From the NCBI GenBank assembly GCA_016190825.1, contig JACPPV010000007.1, forward strand, positions 1-41,006: a DNA stretch of 41,006 nt. The letters run 5' to 3'. This DNA is from Chloroflexota bacterium (GTDB lineage: Bacteria; Chloroflexota; Dehalococcoidia; Dehalococcoidales; UBA2162). The number at the start of each line of letters is the position of its first letter. Position 1 is the first letter of the stretch. Below the pieces are notes generated by a model. The model did no database searches, was not told the DNA's origin, and saw only the letters and a program-made list of their open reading frames with translations. Below are positions 4,597 to 13,312 of the stretch, piece by piece. The translations under genes were made by a program, and so were the position numbers.

Positions 4597-4893
4597 AAGT
4601 GCCTCTTGGAAGCTAAGTTTCGTAGTGTCACCCGCTCGCTAAGTAGACAAAACAAGAAAAAGCTAACGATTAGCTAACGGACACTTCCCAAAGTCCCATT
4701 ATTATGCGGTAGTTTGAGCAGGTCGTCAAATCTTTGCGCCGCCGGGTTCAGTTCAGTCGTGGTGGACACTGAATGTCAGTGTCAGTATCCTCTACACAAA
4801 ACCTTTAGGGGTGTGCGATGACTAGGCGGTCATGGCACTCCCTCAAAGGCTGGTAGAGAGGATGAAAGCCATTATGGTTACGACATTGGGCGA

Positions 4894-4906
4894 TTATATA
4901 CTTGAC
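4894..4906 (+). repeat. Left terminal inverted repeat of the IS1595-like element
   Basis: TTATATACTTGAC, identical over 13 of 13 bases to the reverse complement of 6726-6738. Its last bases are part of the -35 box of the inward promoter. Confidence 0.75.
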
Positions 4907-4930
4907 ACGGATTAGCTTTCATGCTATACT
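4902..4930 (+). promoter_or_regulatory. Promoter at the left IS end
   Basis: TTGACA (4902-4907) and TATACT (4925-4930) are separated by 17 bp, a near-perfect sigma70-type promoter. It points into the element and should drive the transposase. An ATG lies only 6 bp after the -10 box (4937). Confidence 0.75.
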
Positions 4931-4934
4931 ACCC

Positions 4935-5075
4935 TCATGAAGTGGATTTTGAATCTGGTTTATTATCTTTCTCATGAGCAATTTCCTTTAATTTCTCCAG
5001 GATTTTCTTGGGGAAAACCCGTTTCGCCAATTCTTCTGTGGTCATATCAATCAGTCGTTTCTTACGTTTTGGCAT
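4935..5075 (-). CDS. Small basic helical protein within the IS element
   Basis: A 46-residue ORF beginning MPKRKKRLIDMTTEELA and continuing with Lys/Glu-rich sequence. The residue pattern looks like a genuine, mostly helical protein rather than a shadow. A Shine-Dalgarno GGAG (complement of 5083-5086) lies 7 bp before the ATG. The upstream ATG at 5129 lies inside the transposase gene and is less likely. It is divergent from the transposase; the two start codons are 12 bp apart and share the palindromic GGAGGTCTCC as ribosome-binding site. It is antisense to the transposase promoter transcript. I recall similar short proteins beside transposases of this family but cannot name a function; a role in regulating transposition is speculation. 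Confidence 0.5.
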   Translation of the reverse strand: MPKRKKRLIDMTTEELAKRVFPKKILEKLKEIAHEKDNKPDSKSTS

Positions 5076-5077
5076 AG
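4937..5077 (+). CDS. Possible leaderless 46-codon leader ORF before the transposase
   Basis: An open frame of 46 codons begins 6 bp after the -10 box of the IS promoter, so its ATG would be at or next to the mRNA start. It ends in TAG at 5075-5077, overlapping the AGGAGG that serves the transposase, which is a layout that would allow translational coupling. The predicted peptide is hydrophobic and aromatic and resembles nothing I know. It lies exactly opposite the minus-strand small ORF and could be only its shadow. Confidence 0.25.
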   Translation: MKWILNLVYYLSHEQFPLISPGFSWGKPVSPILLWSYQSVVSYVLA

Positions 5078-5087
5078 GAGGTCTCCA

Positions 5088-5987
5088 ATGAAAAACATGG
5101 ACTTGATGAAGATAATGGATAAGTTCCAAAGCGATGACTCATACCGAGAAGCTCTGGTTGAATTGCGCTGGCCGGATGGCGTGACATGCCCACGTTGCTC
5201 AAGTAAGAACATCCGCAATTCCTATACCCGTGACCAATACGATTGTGCTTCATGCGATTATCAATTCTCCGTAACTTCTGGCACTATCTTCCATGACAGC
5301 CACTTGCCTCTTAGGAAGTGGTTTGTCGCTATCTTCCTGATGGTAGAAGCCAAGAAGGGTATGTCGGCTAATCAGCTTAAACGTGTTTTGAACGTCTCCT
5401 ATAAGACAGCCTGGTATCTTTGCCACCGCATCCGGGCCGCAATGTCTGACGGAACGCCAGAACTTCTCAAGGGCATCGTGGAAGTTGATGAGACGTGGGT
5501 AGGTGGCAAGCGCAAGCATGTGGGACATGGTTTCAAGGGCAACAAGGTTATTGTGGTAGGCGCTGCCGAAAGAGACGGAAGGATTTCGCTCAAGCTGATT
5601 GATGCAGCCGATAGAGCCACCCTTCACAAGTTTATCCATTCCACTACCGCACCGGATACCGAAGCTATTTATACCGATGAATGGCCTGCCTATAAAGGTA
5701 TCGCTGACAAAGACACGCGCCATGAATCGGTCAACCACAGCATCGAGGAATGGGTAAGGGGTGATGTCCACACAAACTCGGTTGAGAATGTCTGGTCGCT
5801 TCTCAAGCGGTCTATCATCGGCTCTTATCATAAAATCTCCGTTAAACATCTTGACGCCTACCTTGACGAGCTAGAATGGCGGTTCAACAACCGCAATAAC
5901 GAGTATCTATTCAGGGATACGCTTCTTAAACTCATTCGGTCTGAAAACCTTCCTTACGCAAATTTGGTTTCTTCATTAGAGACCTAG
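5088..5987 (+). CDS. IS1595 family transposase
   Basis: A 299-residue transposase, the usual length for the family. Residues 30-60 hold the N-terminal zinc ribbon (CPRC...CASCDYQF) that marks IS1595/ISXO2 elements. After a helix-turn-helix-like stretch (MSANQLKRVLNVSYKTAWYL) comes the DDE-type catalytic domain: VEVDETWVGGKRK gives the first Asp, IYTDEWPAYKGI the second, and HTNSVENVWSLLKRSI the ENxW block with the final acidic residue. It closes with ELEWRFNNR. AGGAGG at 5076-5081 lies 6 bp before the ATG. No frameshift or stop is visible, so the enzyme may be active. Its 3' end overlaps the convergent passenger gene by 56 bp. Confidence 0.95.
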   Translation: MKNMDLMKIMDKFQSDDSYREALVELRWPDGVTCPRCSSKNIRNSYTRDQYDCASCDYQFSVTSGTIFHDSHLPLRKWFVAIFLMVEAKKGMSANQLKRVLNVSYKTAWYLCHRIRAAMSDGTPELLKGIVEVDETWVGGKRKHVGHGFKGNKVIVVGAAERDGRISLKLIDAADRATLHKFIHSTTAPDTEAIYTDEWPAYKGIADKDTRHESVNHSIEEWVRGDVHTNSVENVWSLLKRSIIGSYHKISVKHLDAYLDELEWRFNNRNNEYLFRDTLLKLIRSENLPYANLVSSLET

Positions 5988-6696
5988 CAGATAAGAAGGG
6001 ATTACCTTCTCCCCTTCCTGGATTTTCTAAAACGAACCATAACGCCGGTTGGTCTATTCGTAGTCCCCTGAACAATACTGCAAGATAGTGACACCCCTTC
6101 GTGATTTTCATTGCTTCTTCTCTGCCTTCTCCAGTCACATAGACAAATGCGTAGGCGTCATCCTCGTCAGGCCATCTCACTGCAACTTGTAATTTTCGAG
6201 GTTCATTATTAGGGGCCCAATGTTCTATTTTCTCCAACCGCTTTTTGATGTTAGCCCACTGAGAGAATTCAGCCTCAATGAAACATCCAGGATTTAGTAG
6301 CCTTTTCTTACTGTTCGTATCGTAAATTACGATGGTGGCGGTAACATCTTCACCGATAGAACTCTCAAGTGCTATCTTCGGCTTATTTACAAACCAAATT
6401 TGCAGCGCTCCCCATATTGCTTTTTTATCTGGGTCCGAGTAGAATTGCCAGTCTCTTGGAGGTTGCTGGACACAGATGTTAGGTTTACTGCGTTCCCTCC
6501 GGTTCTTATACATTTCTAAACCGATAATCCACCACGCTGTAAAACCCAAAAAGAAAAGGAAGGTTATTAGTGACAATGGAATGGAGAGGCCAAACGGCAC
6601 TACCATCTCCGTAATATCATTGCCGTTTAGGAGTGCTGTCACAAGGGCACTCACTAGCGTGCCCCCAACACGAAGAAATACGCCCGTCTTTTCCAT
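5932..6696 (-). CDS. Passenger membrane protein of the IS1595-like element, unknown function
   Basis: A 254-residue protein not recognised as a known family. Two hydrophobic segments (about residues 8-22 and 32-58) suggest two membrane spans near the N-terminus. A basic stop-transfer NRRERSK follows, then a soluble domain of about 190 residues rich in beta-strand-like stretches and Trp. The gene fills the right half of the element and is oriented towards the transposase. It starts 6 bp after a -10 box at the right IS end, so the mRNA is probably leaderless. That makes it a cargo gene expressed from the element's own end. The C-terminal residues are encoded opposite the transposase 3' end. Confidence 0.65.
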   Translation of the reverse strand: MEKTGVFLRVGGTLVSALVTALLNGNDITEMVVPFGLSIPLSLITFLFFLGFTAWWIIGLEMYKNRRERSKPNICVQQPPRDWQFYSDPDKKAIWGALQIWFVNKPKIALESSIGEDVTATIVIYDTNSKKRLLNPGCFIEAEFSQWANIKKRLEKIEHWAPNNEPRKLQVAVRWPDEDDAYAFVYVTGEGREEAMKITKGCHYLAVLFRGLRIDQPALWFVLENPGRGEGNPFLSARSLMKKPNLRKEGFQTE

Positions 6697-6702
6697 ACCC
6701 CT

Positions 6703-6730
6703 ATTCTACCACTTTTAGGATTTGCGTCAA
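6703..6730 (-). promoter_or_regulatory. Promoter at the right IS end, reading inward
   Basis: On the minus strand TTGACG (6725-6730) and TAGAAT (6703-6708) are separated by 16 bp. The ATG of the passenger gene (6696) lies 6 bp downstream of the -10 box, the same geometry as at the left end. Confidence 0.6.
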
Positions 6731-6738
6731 GTATATAA
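6726..6738 (-). repeat. Right terminal inverted repeat of the IS1595-like element
   Basis: Reverse complement of the 13-bp left repeat. As on the left, its inner bases form the -35 box of an inward promoter. Confidence 0.75.
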
Positions 6739-6775
6739 GCCCGAAATCTTACATACTTAGTGCAGGAGGTCAGCA

Positions 6776-7189
6776 ATGTCTACGGAACAGAGCCTCGCTG
6801 CGATCAGGGGCATCATCTATGCGGTCAACGCACAAGATTTCGTCGCGCTGCGAAATGCGGCCCTTCCTGATTTCAAGCGGCACGACCTGGCAGGCGCACT
6901 GTCGGAAGTCACAGGGTTCACGGGCGTGGCCGACCTGATCCAGCTTCTTCTCCGAGCCATGCCGGACATGCACATAGACATCAAACAGATATTTGCCACC
7001 GATGATCGTGTCGCAGCTCATATTGCCGCGGCGGGTACGCACCAGGGCGAGTTGTTTGGGGTCCCCGGCACCGGTAGGCGTCTCGAGGTCAACGGCGTTA
7101 ACCTTTACCGTGTGGCAGACGGGAAACTGGCAGAAACCTGGCAACTGCTTGATGTCTGGGGTTTGATGCGTCAGCTCGGGAAGGTATAG
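6776..7189 (+). CDS. SnoaL-like (ester cyclase/polyketide cyclase-like) protein
   Basis: A 137-residue single-domain protein of the NTF2-like/SnoaL superfamily. Visible features are the N-terminal helix with VNAQDFVALRNAALPDFKRHD, the FTGVADLIQLLLRAMPDMHIDI segment, the strand AAHIAAAGTHQGELFGVPGTGRRLEVNG split by the usual Gly turn, and the final ETWQLLDVWGLMRQLG. Family members are small cone-shaped alpha+beta proteins acting as cyclases, isomerases or binding proteins; the substrate here is unknown. AGGAGGT lies 6 bp upstream of the ATG. The IS1595-like right end is only 37 bp upstream, so the native promoter has probably been displaced. Confidence 0.8.
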   Translation: MSTEQSLAAIRGIIYAVNAQDFVALRNAALPDFKRHDLAGALSEVTGFTGVADLIQLLLRAMPDMHIDIKQIFATDDRVAAHIAAAGTHQGELFGVPGTGRRLEVNGVNLYRVADGKLAETWQLLDVWGLMRQLGKV

Positions 7190-7349
7190 CGGGCCTCAAA
7201 AGGGGGGCAAGGGCGAGTCTGGCCCGGTGAAATGGGACATCGAAGGAAACGACCATCCGGTGCTGCGTGTAGCCGGATACATTCCTCATGGATGCCCGAC
7301 CGCCGCTTTGGTCTTGCTTTGGAAAACCGCAGTACACAAGGGAGGAACA

Positions 7350-7652
7350 ATGGCCACTATAGAGAAAAGCATCAGTATCAACTCGCCGGTGGATAGGGTC
7401 TTCGGCTACTTCGAGACGCCCGACTTTCTGCAGAAGTGTGTGCCATCCCTTGTCGAGGTGAAGGTCTGGGAGCCACTTCCAAGCGGTGGACACCGCTTCC
7501 AGTGCGTGCACCAGAAGGGGGGCCGGCGATTCGATGCAGAGCTCGTAGCGCAGACCGATATCGCGGGTACCTTTTTCATAGCTCTGGGATATCTGACTCC
7601 CTTAAAGTACTTACAGGAAAAGGAAAGGAGGCAGGTGTCACTAATCATATGA
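7350..7652 (+). pseudogene. SRPBCC-family protein, C-terminus replaced
   Basis: The first 70 or so residues (MATIEKSISINSPVDRVFGY, then a Glu-Val-Lys-Val-Trp strand and HRFQCVHQKGGRRFD) fit the START/SRPBCC fold of polyketide-cyclase-like proteins, normally about 145 residues. After about 7565 the sequence stops matching. The frame ends with IALGYLTPLKYLQEKERR, which looks like the last residues of an integrase-core transposase. The gene therefore seems to be cut by an insertion whose own body was later deleted. GGAGG at 7341-7345 selects the ATG at 7350 over an earlier in-frame ATG at 7227. The protein is unlikely to fold as a complete hydrophobic-ligand-binding domain. Confidence 0.65.
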
Positions 7653-7666: not shown

Positions 7667-7695
7667 TTGACACGTCGTGTGTCGAGGAGTAAACT
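7667..7695 (+). promoter_or_regulatory. Promoter with internal palindrome upstream of the hydrolase-C2-CHAT operon
   Basis: TTGACA (7667-7672) and TAAACT (7690-7695) are separated by 17 bp. A perfect 11-bp palindrome, ACACG-T-CGTGT (7670-7680), overlaps the -35 box and the spacer and could be an operator. The first gene starts 245 bp downstream, and no good gene lies between. The promoter abuts the IS remnant and may have been created by it. Confidence 0.5.
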
Positions 7696-7939: not shown

Positions 7940-9307
7940 ATGGCAGGAAAGACGGCTGTGCTGATCATCCACGGCGTCGGTCCACACACGGTATTCCAGG
8001 CATGCGATTCGTTCGTCCAGGGTTTTTGCTCCACTCTCGCAGGCTCCGGAGGATCGAGAAACAAACAAATCAGCCTGCACCACAGATTGAAACAGCGCCG
8101 AGATTCGTCCGGCGGTTCGCCCTGGATCCAAAGCTACGTCTCCTTTCCGGTTCCGGAAAGTGACGAGCAGACGATCGACTTCTACGAATATTTCTGGGAC
8201 ATCTACATGGTCCACAAGCCGAACTTCCGGGACGCCTTCAATATGCTGATCAATGCTTCAAAAAGCGCCCACGACTTCTACGAGAAATACGGAGAAAAGA
8301 ATAAAGATCTGCTGGCAGAAGCAACCGACCTTGGCGAGTTCGGCAGGAAAACCAAGAATGGCAACGTCGAATTCAGACCGGCCGGCTACCTGAAACTGCT
8401 CGGACCGTTCTTCGGGTTTGTTGCGACGGTCCTTCCTTACGCGCCCAAATCCTTCGAGTTCCTGGTATGGTGGTCGCAGACAGGCGTTCCCGTTTTCAAA
8501 CAGGTTTTTGGGGCATTGGGCGGATTCATGAAGGAGCCGGTGCCGGATTTTGTTGGCGACTTGGTGCGCTATCTCGACCTGGATCCGAGATCTGAGCGGT
8601 TCGAAATAAGAAGGCGGATTATGAACGGCGCCATTGACGAACTGAGGGCATTGCTGAGAGACGAAAGCTATGAAAGCATCCTCATCGCCGGGCACTCTCT
8701 CGGGAGCGTCATCGCCTATGATGCCTTGACCCGCGTCATCCAGGAAGTGAGCACTGTGCCGGCGGCTACCGCCGGCCCGGCGAGCGGCGGTAACGGTCTA
8801 ACGCCAGACCAGGTACGCAGGATAAAGGGACTCATAACCTTCGGGTCGCCACTCGATAAGATAGCGCTCTTTTTCCGCGAGCGCATCAAGAATCACCAGG
8901 TGCAGCAGGGGGTGTTGGCCAACCTTCGTGGATTCAGAAGCGTTCGATTGGACCAAGACGCTCCCGAAAGCGATGAGGAGCAGAATGCGTCCGAACACAA
9001 GCCTAAGTTCAAACTCGATAATCCCATCGATACCGACTGGGAGCATTCGATCCGATGGCTCAATTTCTACCACAAACAGGATATCATCAGCGGAAAACTC
9101 GATCTGTACAACCTGAAAGGTCAATTGCTCAAATACCAGCAACCGAAGGTGGCGTCCGGTGAAATAAAGGAGTGCGATGGGAACATCGAGGTTACGTGTG
9201 ATGTCGGCAAGCTCGCTGCCCACGGATGCTACTGGGGCGAATATCAGGGCAAGAAACGGGGCACAAACGAGATGCACGCTGCAATAATCAAGGAGTTCTT
9301 CGCATAG
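7940..9307 (+). CDS. Alpha/beta hydrolase (lipase-like), first gene of a CHAT-protease operon
   Basis: A 455-residue cytoplasmic hydrolase. The N-terminal strand TAVLIIHGVGPHT carries the oxyanion-type HGVG. The nucleophile elbow is G-H-S253-L-G-S. Asp381 in YHKQDIISG and His428 in HGCYWGEY are the likely remaining triad members; the late H-x-x-Y-W pattern is common in this group of putative lipases. A large insert (about residues 60-210), partly helical and hydrophobic, precedes the nucleophile and could be a lid or membrane-touching part. No signal peptide is seen. GGGAGG at 7929-7934 selects the ATG at 7940; an in-frame ATG at 7808 lacks a site. The gene is followed after 69 bp by the C2-like gene. 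The substrate (phospholipid, ester or other) is unknown. Confidence 0.8.
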   Translation: MAGKTAVLIIHGVGPHTVFQACDSFVQGFCSTLAGSGGSRNKQISLHHRLKQRRDSSGGSPWIQSYVSFPVPESDEQTIDFYEYFWDIYMVHKPNFRDAFNMLINASKSAHDFYEKYGEKNKDLLAEATDLGEFGRKTKNGNVEFRPAGYLKLLGPFFGFVATVLPYAPKSFEFLVWWSQTGVPVFKQVFGALGGFMKEPVPDFVGDLVRYLDLDPRSERFEIRRRIMNGAIDELRALLRDESYESILIAGHSLGSVIAYDALTRVIQEVSTVPAATAGPASGGNGLTPDQVRRIKGLITFGSPLDKIALFFRERIKNHQVQQGVLANLRGFRSVRLDQDAPESDEEQNASEHKPKFKLDNPIDTDWEHSIRWLNFYHKQDIISGKLDLYNLKGQLLKYQQPKVASGEIKECDGNIEVTCDVGKLAAHGCYWGEYQGKKRGTNEMHAAIIKEFFA

Positions 9308-9376
9308 CGGGCTGCTGTCACTGACGCCAGACGAGCGGAGTACGGGTTCTCTGAATTCGGGCCAAGGAGGTACGTT

Positions 9377-10057
9377 ATGGATATGTGGCTGGCACGAGAA
9401 GAGGCTTCGTTTGAGCAGAAGCTGTTCGTCCCCGGAGCCGCCCGGGCAGCGCGTTCCAAAAATAATTACAGCATCCTGGTACGCGCAGTGCACATACTTG
9501 ACAATAGGCGCCTCTTCGGGGCGTCAGATGTCATTGTGTTCACTGTTGTTGTCGACGGTTATCCGGACATGAAGTCGAAGGCGCCGTTCTGGGCCCAGGA
9601 GTTCAAGTTCGTGGACGTCAAGGATGGCGCAACATTGCCTATCGACGCCGATTTGGGCGCACTGATATACCGTGGCAAGCCTCGTGATTTCCTGAACCTG
9701 TACATCCTTGTCGTTCGAGACATGGAATCAACCCGGAGATTCGCTGATCTTCTGAGCAAGAACCTCGTAGCCAAAGGTCTGGGGACCCTGGCTGGCGCGG
9801 CTGTCTCTATCTTCTCCGGTCTGCCCTCGACCATGACAGTGCCTGTGGTGCGGGATCTGACGACGCAGGCGGTTGAAACGACGCTTGACTACTTTCGTCA
9901 GCAGAAGAACGTGGCGATCGGCACCTATTATGCCTCGCTTATCAAGGAGAAGAACGATTTCGGTTCAGGGCTGCACCCGCCGGACTACCCATCCAGCCTT
10001 GTCAATTGCGGCGGCGCTCTTGAGATCGCCCTTGAAGTTAAGAAGGAGACGAAATGA
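9377..10057 (+). CDS. C2-like beta-rich protein of the CHAT-protease operon, unknown function
   Basis: A 226-residue protein not assignable to a named family. Residues 32-112 have alternating strands (SILVRAVHILDNRRLF, then VIVFTVVVDGY, FWAQEFKFVDV, LNLYILVVRD) that look like a C2-type beta-sandwich. Residues 134-158 form a Gly/Ala-rich hydrophobic stretch (GLGTLAGAAVSIFSG) that could insert in a membrane. Residues 176-222 return to strands with a conserved-looking NDFGSGLHPPDY turn and CGGALEIALEV. There is no signal peptide. AAGGAGGT lies just upstream of the ATG. The stop codon overlaps the ATG of the protease gene (ATGA), so the two are translationally coupled. It could be the substrate, target-binding or membrane-acting partner of the protease. 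That is inference from context. Confidence 0.6.
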   Translation: MDMWLAREEASFEQKLFVPGAARAARSKNNYSILVRAVHILDNRRLFGASDVIVFTVVVDGYPDMKSKAPFWAQEFKFVDVKDGATLPIDADLGALIYRGKPRDFLNLYILVVRDMESTRRFADLLSKNLVAKGLGTLAGAAVSIFSGLPSTMTVPVVRDLTTQAVETTLDYFRQQKNVAIGTYYASLIKEKNDFGSGLHPPDYPSSLVNCGGALEIALEVKKETK

Positions 10058-11631
10058 AGTCGATTTTCCTGCCCTGGACCGCCCGCGGCGTCAGGCACGG
10101 GTCGAGTACCTATCTCGCGGCCGTTTCTCTGGACTACGATTTCTTGAGGCGGTCAGCGCCGCCAGTCCGCTCGGCGGATATGCTCATCGATCCAGACATG
10201 CCTTTTACGAGGGCGATCCGCGCCATCGCTGAAATACGCTCTGGGGGACGGCTGGAGGGACCGCCGATGGAATACGGCTGCTTTAACCACGATGGGAGTC
10301 TCATCCAGGACCCTTCGCTACGGTTCTCCCGACAAGTCCGCAACATTCTTTACTACATCATACGCGACCTGTTCAACGTTAGCAGACGGCAGCCGCAGCA
10401 CAGTCCTGGTATGATGCTCGGCGTAGCTGATACCGTCCCCACGGAGCCACGCGGCAACTGGGGGGCGCTAATCACGGAGGTCTGCCCTCACAAAGCCGAG
10501 GTCGAGCGAGCGTTGCAGCCGCTGATTGAACACCGTTCCGGCCAGTTGCTAGTGCTGCCCAAACTCGATCCGCCAGCTTTCGTGGATCAATGGTTGCAGC
10601 CACGCTTCAACGATGGCTCCATTCCCCCGTATCTGCTGATCTGCGAAACGTTCGAAAACTTCCCGCTCGAGTACCAGTTCATCCTGAACTCGTTTGCCGT
10701 TGCGGGGCGGCTTTGGTTTGACGACCCGGGAACGTTCGAGACGTACGTCCAGAAGGTCCTCACTGTTGAGCGGGGACAGCGTGATGCCGGGACGCGGTGC
10801 ATCGTAGCCAGCCCTGTCGATGACGATGTGACATTTGCGGACAACGAGAATTTAATCAAGCCTCTGCTGGAGCTCCCCAAGACGGAGTCTTTGCCGATGG
10901 AACCTTTGCTGCCTCCGGAGTTTGGCGAGCAATCATTACTCGAAGCTGCCGGAGAAGCGCGTTTTCTCGCGCTCTACTGCCACGGCGTCGGCCTGACGCT
11001 GGAAGAGTGGGAAAAGAAGCCAGGTTTGCAGGGAGCCTTTCTGCTCGAATTCGGCAGCGAGTCAGATGAGGGTCTCCTGACCACCGACGATTTCGCCCGG
11101 AACAAGTTTGTCCCTGGCGGTATTGTTTTCTCTCCCGCGTGCCTGGCCGGTGGCACGATGGTGCCGTCTGATTTTTCCTCATGGATCGACCCCGAAGGCC
11201 TGACGCCGTATGGTGGAGGCCGCACGAAGCTCTCTGAGACCAGCCTGGCCATGTTGGGCTCTCCCCGTGGACCGATTGCTGTGCTGGCGCACTTCGACAT
11301 ATCAATCGCCAGCAGCGCCCCCATGTTCAACTCGATGACTCAGCGGAACGACCTTCAGACGATGCTGCACACGCAGTTTTTGCGCCATCTCGCCGCCGGA
11401 TGGACTCTGGGGCGCGCCACCAAGCCATTCCGCTGGGCTGCCGGGACTTGCTATGCTCAGTCGATCTACATCTTCGGACAAATGACTGGTACGTACCCAT
11501 ATATCGGCACTTCCGGAGTCCGGAAGACCATCGGCCAAGCTGTCAACTCGATGAACCAGTACCATGTCGCCGCCACAGACATGCGGAACTACATTATCCT
11601 GGGCGATCCCGCGGTACGGCTACCGTCGTAA
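10054..11631 (+). CDS. Caspase-like protease (CHAT / C25-type)
   Basis: A 525-residue protein with a C-terminal clan-CD cysteine-protease domain. The dyad is His310 in LALYCHGVGL and Cys363 in IVFSPACLAGGT, 53 residues apart, as usual in caspases and CHAT proteins. Downstream come GPIAVLAHFD and the C-terminal NYIILGDPAVRL, a signature shared by CHAT and gingipain-like domains. Residues 1-290 hold no recognisable repeat; they include a helical stretch and an LLICETFENFPLEYQFILNS segment and may be the sensor or regulatory part. No signal peptide is seen, so it should act in the cytoplasm. It overlaps the C2-like gene by 4 bp and is last in the operon. CHAT proteases in known bacterial systems cleave specific partner proteins to trigger a response. 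The target here is unknown. Confidence 0.75.
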   Translation: MKSIFLPWTARGVRHGSSTYLAAVSLDYDFLRRSAPPVRSADMLIDPDMPFTRAIRAIAEIRSGGRLEGPPMEYGCFNHDGSLIQDPSLRFSRQVRNILYYIIRDLFNVSRRQPQHSPGMMLGVADTVPTEPRGNWGALITEVCPHKAEVERALQPLIEHRSGQLLVLPKLDPPAFVDQWLQPRFNDGSIPPYLLICETFENFPLEYQFILNSFAVAGRLWFDDPGTFETYVQKVLTVERGQRDAGTRCIVASPVDDDVTFADNENLIKPLLELPKTESLPMEPLLPPEFGEQSLLEAAGEARFLALYCHGVGLTLEEWEKKPGLQGAFLLEFGSESDEGLLTTDDFARNKFVPGGIVFSPACLAGGTMVPSDFSSWIDPEGLTPYGGGRTKLSETSLAMLGSPRGPIAVLAHFDISIASSAPMFNSMTQRNDLQTMLHTQFLRHLAAGWTLGRATKPFRWAAGTCYAQSIYIFGQMTGTYPYIGTSGVRKTIGQAVNSMNQYHVAATDMRNYIILGDPAVRLPS

Positions 11632-12054
11632 AGCTGCCCGCTCGCAGGCACAGAACCAGAGGTTCGAGCGGAGACTCGTCAGGCTTCGCGCCCAGATCTG
11701 TCAGATTGCCTGTGGCTCACCTGCTTGCTGGCTTGTTCTTACGCCCTGCTATGACAGCGACTCCTCCACAGCATCCCACTTTCGTCCACATTATTCAGCG
11801 CTCCCCATTTATCGAAGCCCGTGTTATTGTTTGTTTCAAGTCGATATTACTTGTCCACGTGTCCGCCGCACGATGTTATCAACCGAATGGTGCTCACACC
11901 AATAGTAACTAAAGTGCAACGGTGCTCGCTTCGACCATGGAACAAGTTGGCTCGCGCTGCCAAATGTCCCGGCATCAATTGAAGAGGCAGCAATGATACC
12001 ACGGAAACACCTTAGTGCAACCACTCAGCAGCAAAACCGCCTACCAGTAATGAA
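11632..12054. other. Gap downstream of the protease gene, no gene recognised
   Basis: About 420 bp with no credible start signals or known motifs. It may be debris of a lost gene or mobile element. A strong hairpin terminator closes it at 12055. Confidence 0.5.
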
Positions 12055-12095
12055 GGAAGAAGCCCCGATATGAACCGGGGGCTTCTTCCTTTTTT
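12055..12095 (+). terminator. Rho-independent terminator between convergent operons
   Basis: A perfect 12-bp stem (GGAAGAAGCCCC at 12055-12066 with GGGGCTTCTTCC at 12078-12089) and an 11-nt loop are followed by six T on the plus strand. It best serves plus-strand transcripts from the protease operon. On the minus strand it follows the surface-protein operon by about 26 bp but is trailed by only a weak T-run, so it may also slow transcription from that side. Confidence 0.85.
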
Positions 12096-12115
12096 GTGAC
12101 TGCAGGGGAAGCCAG

Positions 12116-13312
12116 CTAGCCTTGCCTTTGTTTCCTGCGCAGGAGAAGTATGGCTGTGCCAATGACCAGTACGGCGACGCCAACTATTCCGGCAACCAAT
12201 GCCAGGTTATTCGCCGGTTTGAGCGCTTCGGGTGACGGTAACGGGGGCGATGGAGCCGCCGGTGTCACACTGGGCGCCAGTTCTTGCGCTGGCTCCGATG
12301 TTACACCGGGTTTCGGAGCTGGCACGGGTGATGGCTCCGGAGCCGGTACCGGGACTGGCGCTGTAACAACCACAGGCGTTGACGGCAACACCACTGGCTC
12401 AAAGATTATGGCAAACTCGGTGAAATGGCTCACCGGTGCCATGATGGTATTGTTTACCGGATCCACGGTGCTGCCCAGTTTCTCCCATTTGCCGGCGGAA
12501 GCATCCCACCAGGCAACAAAGAGCCTATCGACCGTTGTTCCCGGTGGCAAAGTTGCTGGGTTGAAACTCAAAGTCATGATTATCGGCGGGTTAAACCTGG
12601 CTCCCGCCGGGCCGAACTCATAGGCCAGTACGACGGATCCGCCTAGCGGAGGGACCGGCGGCGTAGCCAGGGGCGCCGCGCTGAGGGTAGAAATCGCCTG
12701 GCCAGCTTTATCTGTCATTTCCGTACCCGCCGCGATGTTGATATCGACCTTGCTGTCAGCGGTCTTAAGTTTGGCCGCGTTTTGCGTCTTGCCCCTGTTA
12801 TCAAGAGCGGACGCTGTTCCGGTGAGACCGGTTAGCGCAACAGTAGTGCTCCCGGTTCCCCCGCCAGCAGGAGGGGCGCCACCACCGGGGGCAACGCCAC
12901 CACCCCCACCTCCTCCCGGAGGTGGGGCAGCATCCTTGACTACCGTCAGGTCAAGCCGGCTGATCTGTCCGCTAACCCACGTGGCGGTCTGCGTTGCCGG
13001 CTTTCCATCAACGAAGAAGCTTACGGTTGCTCCCTGGGCGATCGCGCCCTGTACAACCAGCTTGGGATCAAAACTGCCCGGGCCGCCGTACGCCCCCTGC
13101 AGGGTAGTGGTTAGTGGGTTTCCGGCAATTCCGGTCAAGACTCCGGTACCTCTGGCCTCTACCCTGGTCCCGACCTTGGCAGGCGCGCCCTCTACGGTCA
13201 GGTTGCCGTAGAAAGCGTGCGGCAACTCCGGTACCGCTGCGGAAACGGGGACGGCAATACCGGCAAGCCAGGATGCGGCCAGTAAGCCAACTAACAATCT
13301 TTTCACTCTCAT
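12116..13312 (-). CDS. Exported, C-terminally anchored surface protein, last gene of the redox operon
   Basis: 398 residues. A Sec signal peptide (1-25) is followed by a beta-rich region (about 28-130) ending in DLTVV. A linker of up to seven consecutive Gly, with further Gly and Pro, follows. Then comes a module (about 160-305) with DIAAGTEMTDKAGQAI-like and VVLAYEFGPAGARFNPP segments ending in VSHFTEFAIIFE, which resembles ZU5/adhesion-type domains. A Pro-rich stalk (about 310-365) leads to one transmembrane helix and the basic tail RRKQRQG. The architecture is of a protein standing on the outer face of the membrane. The module and tail are paralogous to the end of the protein at 16884-19199. 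GGAGG lies 11 bp before the ATG. The function is unknown; it may scaffold the oxidases or peroxidase. Confidence 0.7.
   Translation of the reverse strand: MRVKRLLVGLLAASWLAGIAVPVSAAVPELPHAFYGNLTVEGAPAKVGTRVEARGTGVLTGIAGNPLTTTLQGAYGGPGSFDPKLVVQGAIAQGATVSFFVDGKPATQTATWVSGQISRLDLTVVKDAAPPPGGGGGGGVAPGGGAPPAGGGTGSTTVALTGLTGTASALDNRGKTQNAAKLKTADSKVDINIAAGTEMTDKAGQAISTLSAAPLATPPVPPLGGSVVLAYEFGPAGARFNPPIIMTLSFNPATLPPGTTVDRLFVAWWDASAGKWEKLGSTVDPVNNTIMAPVSHFTEFAIIFEPVVLPSTPVVVTAPVPVPAPEPSPVPAPKPGVTSEPAQELAPSVTPAAPSPPLPSPEALKPANNLALVAGIVGVAVLVIGTAILLLRRKQRQG

What the first reader, a model, noticed from the sequence alone, without database searches (positions are those of the whole stretch)
7940..11631. 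Three-gene hydrolase / C2-like protein / caspase-like protease operon
Seen: a serine hydrolase with G-H-S-L-G-S and likely Asp381/His428, a C2-like protein with a hydrophobic stretch, and a protease with His310 and Cys363, joined by a 69-bp gap and a 4-bp ATGA overlap, flanked by IS remnants. Known: CHAT-type proteases in bacteria act with partners in effector or defence pathways. Inferred: the protease may cleave and release the C2-like protein (membrane damage) or activate the lipase-like hydrolase, forming an abortive-infection-type or programmed-death module. I know of no described system with this exact trio.
Basis: partly seen in the sequence, partly recalled or inferred. Interest (0 to 1): 0.85.

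Follow-up and report, generated by a model that had tools for sequence, protein, structure and literature searches.

The report
Caspase-like protease, lipase and C2 trio
Three neighbouring genes of an uncultured Chloroflexota bacterium encode a probable lipase, a membrane-binding-like (C2-like) protein and a caspase-like protease; relatives of the lipase-protease pair and of the C2-protease pair recur across distant bacteria, often fused or beside immune-type switch proteins, so the set is probably a protease-gated defence or cell-death module with a little-known C2-like part.

Summary
The three genes are real, at the stated coordinates, with convincing active sites. The protease is not a CHAT protein but a gingipain-like (C25-like) clan-CD member: His310 and Cys363 are conserved in 79/80 and 78/80 relatives, and the predicted fold matches gingipain K and separase. 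The middle protein belongs to a family without a Pfam model whose predicted fold resembles C2 domains, with a helical insert. The exact trio was found nowhere else, but both pairings recur. C25-like relatives lie beside, or are fused to, another alpha/beta-hydrolase family, in contexts with nSTAND/NACHT NTPases, CHAT, TPR, WD40 and caspases. C2-like relatives are fused to caspases (16 loci), or lie beside CHAT genes or in an EAD1/MoxR/vWA cluster in Chloroflexota, Actinomycetota and Cyanobacteriota. Caspase-hydrolase pairing was already described (Kaur et al. 2020), so the principle is known; I found no description of the C2-like family, although the literature search was limited. Best reading: a protease-gated membrane-attack (abortive-infection type) effector module, probably acquired horizontally. 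Composition is well supported; cleavage, membrane damage and phage defence are inferred. No sensor gene is next to it here.

The parts
7940..9307 (+). Alpha/beta-hydrolase (455 aa), predicted lipase/esterase; HG at start, GHSLG, FGSPLDK
   Evidence: weak Lipase_3 hit E 6.8e-4, below the curated cut-off; triad aligned with relatives
8696..8698 (+). codon of nucleophile Ser253
9080..9082 (+). codon of catalytic Asp381
   Evidence: conserved in the aligned members
9221..9223 (+). codon of catalytic His428
   Evidence: conserved in the aligned members
9377..10057 (+). C2-like protein (226 aa): predicted beta-sandwich with a helical insert
   Evidence: AlphaFold2 model pLDDT 72.8; Foldseek PDB hits dominated by C2 domains, best E 5.5e-3, none below 1e-3; relatives
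9740..9898 (+). helical insert (residues 122-174) between strands 6 and 7; strongly hydrophobic in relatives, modest here
10054..11631 (+). Clan-CD cysteine protease, C25/gingipain-like (525 aa; residues 1-130 poorly predicted and mostly without counterpart in relatives)
   Evidence: Pfam Peptidase_C25 E 1.2e-4, 21.9 vs cut-off 23 bits; AF2 plus Foldseek to gingipain K E 2.8e-8 and separase
10981..10983 (+). codon of catalytic His310
   Evidence: 79/80 relatives
11140..11142 (+). codon of catalytic Cys363
   Evidence: 78/80 relatives
7667..7695 (+). possible sigma-70-like promoter TTGACA-17-TAAACT upstream of the operon
   Evidence: consensus match only, no more than chance in number
12063..12096 (+). 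hairpin plus T-run, probable terminator about 430 bp after the operon
4885..6747 (.). IS1595/ISXO2-type element (transposase 5088-5987 +, passenger ORF 5932-6696 -) 1.2 kb upstream of the trio; a neighbour, not part of the module
   Evidence: Pfam DDE_Tnp_IS1595 E 2.1e-39, inverted repeats

Best explanation
A protease-gated membrane-attack effector module of the caspase/alpha-beta-hydrolase kind found in bacterial conflict (immune / programmed death) systems. The C25-like clan-CD protease is the switch: when a trigger activates it, it acts together with the C2-like protein, which brings it (and possibly the lipase) to the membrane or is its cleaved, membrane-inserting substrate; the alpha/beta-hydrolase is the lipid-attacking executioner, held inactive or mislocalised until then. 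The outcome would be growth arrest or death of an infected cell. Shown here by computation: gene identities, active sites, clan-CD fold, C2-like fold (weakly), recurrence of protease+hydrolase (with another hydrolase family) and of protease+C2-like as neighbours and as fusions. Inferred: cleavage, membrane attack, phage trigger.
For: Active sites and operon structure. Clan-CD fold: gingipain K E 2.8e-8, separase. Among 71 loci from a genome scan, a GHSFG alpha/beta-hydrolase family is fused to the protease in 2 (L064, L081) and within about 160 bp or overlapping, same strand, in 14 more, in several phyla. Neighbours include CHAT (24 of 94 scanned proteins, which include some protease-family members), nSTAND1, TPR, WD40, NACHT/HEAT, caspase C14, EAD11. 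C2-like relatives, found by searching with the C2-like sequence alone, are linked to a clan-CD protease in about 21 of 24 loci, the window included: 16 Micromonosporaceae caspase fusions plus one Nonomuraea fusion, adjacent CHAT genes in Chloroflexota and Actinoplanes, and a Nostoc plasmid cluster with EAD1-trypsin, MoxR, vWA and EAD1-CHAT. The His/Cys dyad is intact in all 14 caspase fusions aligned. Kaur et al. 2020 state that caspase domains in VMAP systems always have a neighbouring alpha/beta-hydrolase gene. No match in 245 genomes of the class besides its own, nor in 60 nearer relatives.
Against: The exact trio was seen only once. The window hydrolase is of a different family from the hydrolases that pair with the other C25-like proteases (hhalign probability 19%, nucleophile elbow only), and none of the relatives of this hydrolase that I looked at lies beside such a protease. 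No sensor (STAND, CHAT, MoxR, TIR) is in the operon, and the genome has no CHAT and no above-cut-off nSTAND1. PADLOC has no hit. The host is a small-genome lineage, whereas the described systems favour multicellular bacteria. No experiment.
Confidence: 0.45

Rival explanations
1. The C2-like protein is only a membrane anchor/adaptor for the protease (as fused to caspases in actinobacteria), and the hydrolase is a protease substrate that makes a lipid or small-molecule signal rather than killing the cell: a signalling or stress module, not abortive infection.
For: C2-like domains sit in cis on caspases and Foldseek hits are C2 domains; Plasmodium metacaspase-1 has an N-terminal C2 domain, a eukaryotic parallel (PMC2075530, PMC3058108).
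Against: Contexts of relatives are rich in EADs, STAND NTPases and CHAT, typical of conflict systems.
Confidence: 0.25
2. Housekeeping or secreted hydrolases: the protease processes surface or exported proteins (gingipain-like) and the lipase is nutritional; co-location is a chance result of IS-driven rearrangement.
For: C25 peptidases are best known as secreted enzymes; an IS1595-type element lies 1.2 kb upstream; relatives of this hydrolase occur without the protease.
Against: No signal peptide is apparent on reading any of the three sequences (not tested with a predictor); 4-bp overlap and good ribosome-binding sites; recurrent fusions and conflict-type neighbours of protease relatives.
Confidence: 0.12
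3. A decayed or orphan piece of a larger STAND/TPR-CHAT system that lost its sensor; no longer functional as a unit.
For: Many relatives have large NTPase or CHAT partners and this locus has none; long branch of the protease.
Against: All three frames and all catalytic residues intact; a minimal trio could be sensed by other means.
Confidence: 0.13

Closest known systems
Caspase + alpha/beta-hydrolase pairs in VMAP (MoxR-vWA) and GAP1-N1 conflict systems (Kaur et al. 2020, PMC7159879)
   Same: A caspase-superfamily peptidase gene with a neighbouring alpha/beta-hydrolase gene, predicted to operate together
   Different: No MoxR, vWA, VMAP, GTPase or GAP1 gene was identified in this window; the protease is C25-like; a C2-like protein lies between
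EACC1-caspase two-gene system (Kaur et al. 2020, system 4)
   Same: Caspase joined to variable domains, probably acting near membranes; actinobacterial C2-like relatives are C-terminal parts of caspase proteins
   Different: No EACC1 gene identified beside the window trio; C2-like protein is separate; hydrolase added; phylum differs
Craspase (type III-E gRAMP + TPR-CHAT cleaving Csx30) and other CRISPR-linked CHAT proteases
   Same: Clan-CD protease proposed to activate a partner by cleavage
   Different: No CRISPR effector; C25-like, not CHAT; no Csx30-like partner
Apicomplexan metacaspase-1 (C2 domain + C14 domain)
   Same: C2 domain linked with a caspase-type protease
   Different: Eukaryotic, fused, N-terminal canonical C2 domain; here a separate, Pfam-negative C2-like protein with a helical insert
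Gingipains (peptidase family C25)
   Same: Protease fold and His/Cys order; conserved C-terminal GDPAVRL motif in the family
   Different: Below the Pfam cut-off; apparently intracellular, operon-encoded with hydrolase and C2-like protein

Membership tests
Clan CD / peptidase C25-like | His then Cys dyad on the caspase-type fold | tested here: met
   79/80 and 78/80 conserved; Foldseek gingipain K E 2.8e-8, separase 8.5e-4
Peptidase C25 sensu Pfam PF01364 | score above gathering cut-off | tested here: not met
   21.9 vs 23 bits; so C25-like rather than a C25 member
CHAT (PF12770) | score above gathering cut-off | tested here: not met
   17.1 vs 24 bits
Alpha/beta-hydrolase superfamily | nucleophile elbow GxSxG, acid, His, oxyanion HG | tested here: met
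   Ser253, Asp381, His428 and HG aligned with relatives
Lipase class 3 (PF01764) | score above gathering cut-off | tested here: not met
   20 vs 22 bits
C2 domain | eight-stranded C2 beta-sandwich | tested here: inconclusive
   AF2 pLDDT 72.8; C2 domains dominate Foldseek hits but best E is 5.5e-3 and TM about 0.3
C2 domain (Pfam) | sequence match to a Pfam C2 model | tested here: not met
   no Pfam match for this or two relatives except chance-level DUF533
VMAP / MoxR-vWA ternary system | VMAP-MoxR-vWA genes in a row | tested here: not met
   none among the window genes scanned; not every window ORF was scanned; a C2-like relative in Nostoc is beside MoxR and vWA
EACC1-caspase system | upstream EACC1 single-TM gene | tested here: not met
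   the gene upstream of the C2-like/protease pair is the hydrolase
PADLOC-listed defence systems | match to any PADLOC model | tested here: not met
   no hit for any of the three
Abortive-infection system | phage-triggered death or arrest | not testable with these tools
   needs experiment

The most novel reading that the evidence does not exclude
The middle gene defines a dedicated third component of bacterial caspase-type effector systems: a C2-like membrane module with a hydrophobic helical insert that is used, in cis or in trans, by three different clan-CD protease families (caspase C14, CHAT, C25-like), either to target the protease and its lipase partner to membranes or as a protease-released membrane-inserting effector.
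Probability: 0.35. Interest if true: 0.75.

Novelty: new variant of a known kind. Interest (0 to 1): 0.6.

Why it matters
Bacterial caspase-like proteases are common, but few have a known substrate or executioner. A lipase and a C2-like protein encoded with the protease, with relatives fused to caspases or C25-like proteases elsewhere, give directly testable partners: does the protease cleave or recruit them, and does that damage membranes? If so, it would be a proteolysis-gated membrane-death route that does not use gasdermins, with a parallel in C2-bearing metacaspases of apicomplexan parasites.

Tried and rejected
CHAT assignment of the protease (below cut-off; fold nearest gingipain). Common ancestry at family level of the window hydrolase with the GHSFG hydrolases paired with other proteases (hhalign probability 19%): rejected, so the pairing is analogous, not homologous on that side. 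First P0002 hits in two Acidobacteriota genomes were frames antisense to or overlapping other coding sequence, and a Pseudomonas hit (E 6e-4) looked like chance. An early hydrolase profile was contaminated by the fused proteins and was rebuilt on domain boundaries. Viral scans with P0001, P0002, P0003 and the A6 protease alignment, and a phage search with P0003, gave nothing. No exact trio elsewhere; the genome-contig scan was single and seeded by one short conserved protease motif, so it is far from exhaustive.

Full report
Observation. Three genes lie head to tail: hydrolase 7940-9307, C2-like protein 9377-10057, protease 10054-11631, each with a Shine-Dalgarno-like sequence, a 69-bp gap and an ATGA overlap. 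Only one IS element is nearby, an IS1595-type element at 4885-6747 with inverted repeats; I saw none on the other side. The trio's G+C (56.5%) does not stand out from the window (55.1%).

Protease. Pfam gives sub-threshold matches to Peptidase_C25 (21.9 of 23 bits) and CHAT (17.1 of 24). A plasmid tblastn and a genome scan gave relatives in Acidobacteriota, Planctomycetota, Myxococcota, Chloroflexota, Pseudomonadota, Actinomycetota, Asgard archaea and others. His310 and Cys363 are conserved in 79/80 and 78/80. The AlphaFold2 model (mean pLDDT 75; residues 1-130 unreliable) matches gingipain K (E 2.8e-8) and separase (E 8.5e-4) in the PDB. It is a long, isolated branch.

Protease and hydrolase. 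In the 71 genome-scan loci an alpha/beta-hydrolase family (about 435 aa, GHSFG) is fused to the protease in two (L064, 1390 aa; L081, 960 aa), lies within about 160 bp or overlaps on the same strand in 14 more (two of these, L085 and L096, from one MAG), and occurs within about 5 kb in a few others. It also precedes the protease directly on a Sinorhizobium plasmid. Neighbours of the family include nSTAND1-WD40, CHAT-NACHT-HEAT, TPR-CHAT, caspase C14 and EAD11 proteins. The window hydrolase has a good triad but belongs to another hydrolase family, whose other members I examined were not beside such proteases. The slot is filled by analogy, not by an orthologue. Kaur et al. 2020 (PMC7159879) already reported that caspases of VMAP systems always have a neighbouring alpha/beta-hydrolase gene, so this pairing principle is known.

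C2-like protein. It matches no Pfam model. A relative in Chloroflexota genome G382 (E 8e-24) starts 35 bp after a TPR-CHAT gene. Searching with that relative found one on a Nostoc plasmid (60.9% identical) followed by EAD1-trypsin, EAD1, MoxR, vWA and a TIR-EAD1-CHAT gene, one overlapping a CHAT gene in Actinoplanes, one at the C-terminus of a Nonomuraea caspase followed by TPR-CHAT, and relatives in 20 of 151 Micromonosporaceae genomes, 16 of them the C-terminal part of a caspase protein. The caspase dyad is intact in all 14 aligned. Three actinobacterial loci (L166, L167, L169) showed no such link. Because these were found with the C2-like sequence alone, the linkage is not an artefact of searching near proteases, but the Micromonosporaceae are related genomes and not independent events. 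The AlphaFold2 model (pLDDT 72.8) is a beta-sandwich with a helical insert; Foldseek hits are dominated by C2 domains (Jagged, NEDD4, CAR4, PLC-delta, cPLA2), but at E 5.5e-3 or worse: C2-like, not proven C2. The insert is hydrophobic in relatives, less so here. I found no description of this family in Kaur et al. 2020, where the phrase 'C2 domain' does not occur (that paper's source data were not read), nor in the other papers searched.

Mechanism. The most economical reading is a protease-gated effector set: protease as switch, C2-like protein as membrane targeting partner or cleaved membrane-active substrate, hydrolase as lipid-attacking executioner. Shown: components, active sites, recurrence of the two pairings. 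Inferred: cleavage, direction of activation, membrane attack, phage trigger. The missing sensor is a weakness.

Verdict. A new variant of a known kind (caspase-type protease plus alpha/beta-hydrolase conflict modules), of interest mainly for the C2-like family linked to three clan-CD protease families. The exact trio has been seen once.

Noticed in passing
window 4885-6747: IS1595/ISXO2-type element with open transposase frame, 22-nt inverted repeats (82%) and an antisense 254-aa passenger ORF with hydrophobic N-terminal segments and no clear Pfam match.
   Followed up: partly
L120 5506-7290 (+), array before it, 9230-12501 after it: A relative of the window hydrolase lies between a long CRISPR-like repeat array and genes that look Cmr-type (by eye) in a Chloroflexota genome; it may be a CRISPR-linked hydrolase.
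   Followed up: no
L064 6357-10529; L081 6609-9491: Single polypeptides fusing a GHSFG alpha/beta-hydrolase to the C25-like protease; L064 has a further roughly 400-residue C-terminal part not identified.
   Followed up: partly
L152-L165, L168: Micromonosporaceae caspase-C2-like fusions often have a roughly 1000-aa protein upstream that looks like an AAA/STAND-type regulator (by eye), and CHAT genes nearby.
   Followed up: partly
L003 1460-7059: Bradyrhizobium plasmid operon: alpha/beta-hydrolase, 489-aa protein, CHAT protein and C25-like protease in a row, a four-gene version.
   Followed up: partly
window 6776-7186 and 7227-7649 (+): SnoaL-like protein and a polyketide-cyclase-like ORF (start unclear, just below its Pfam cut-off) between the IS element and the trio.
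   Followed up: no
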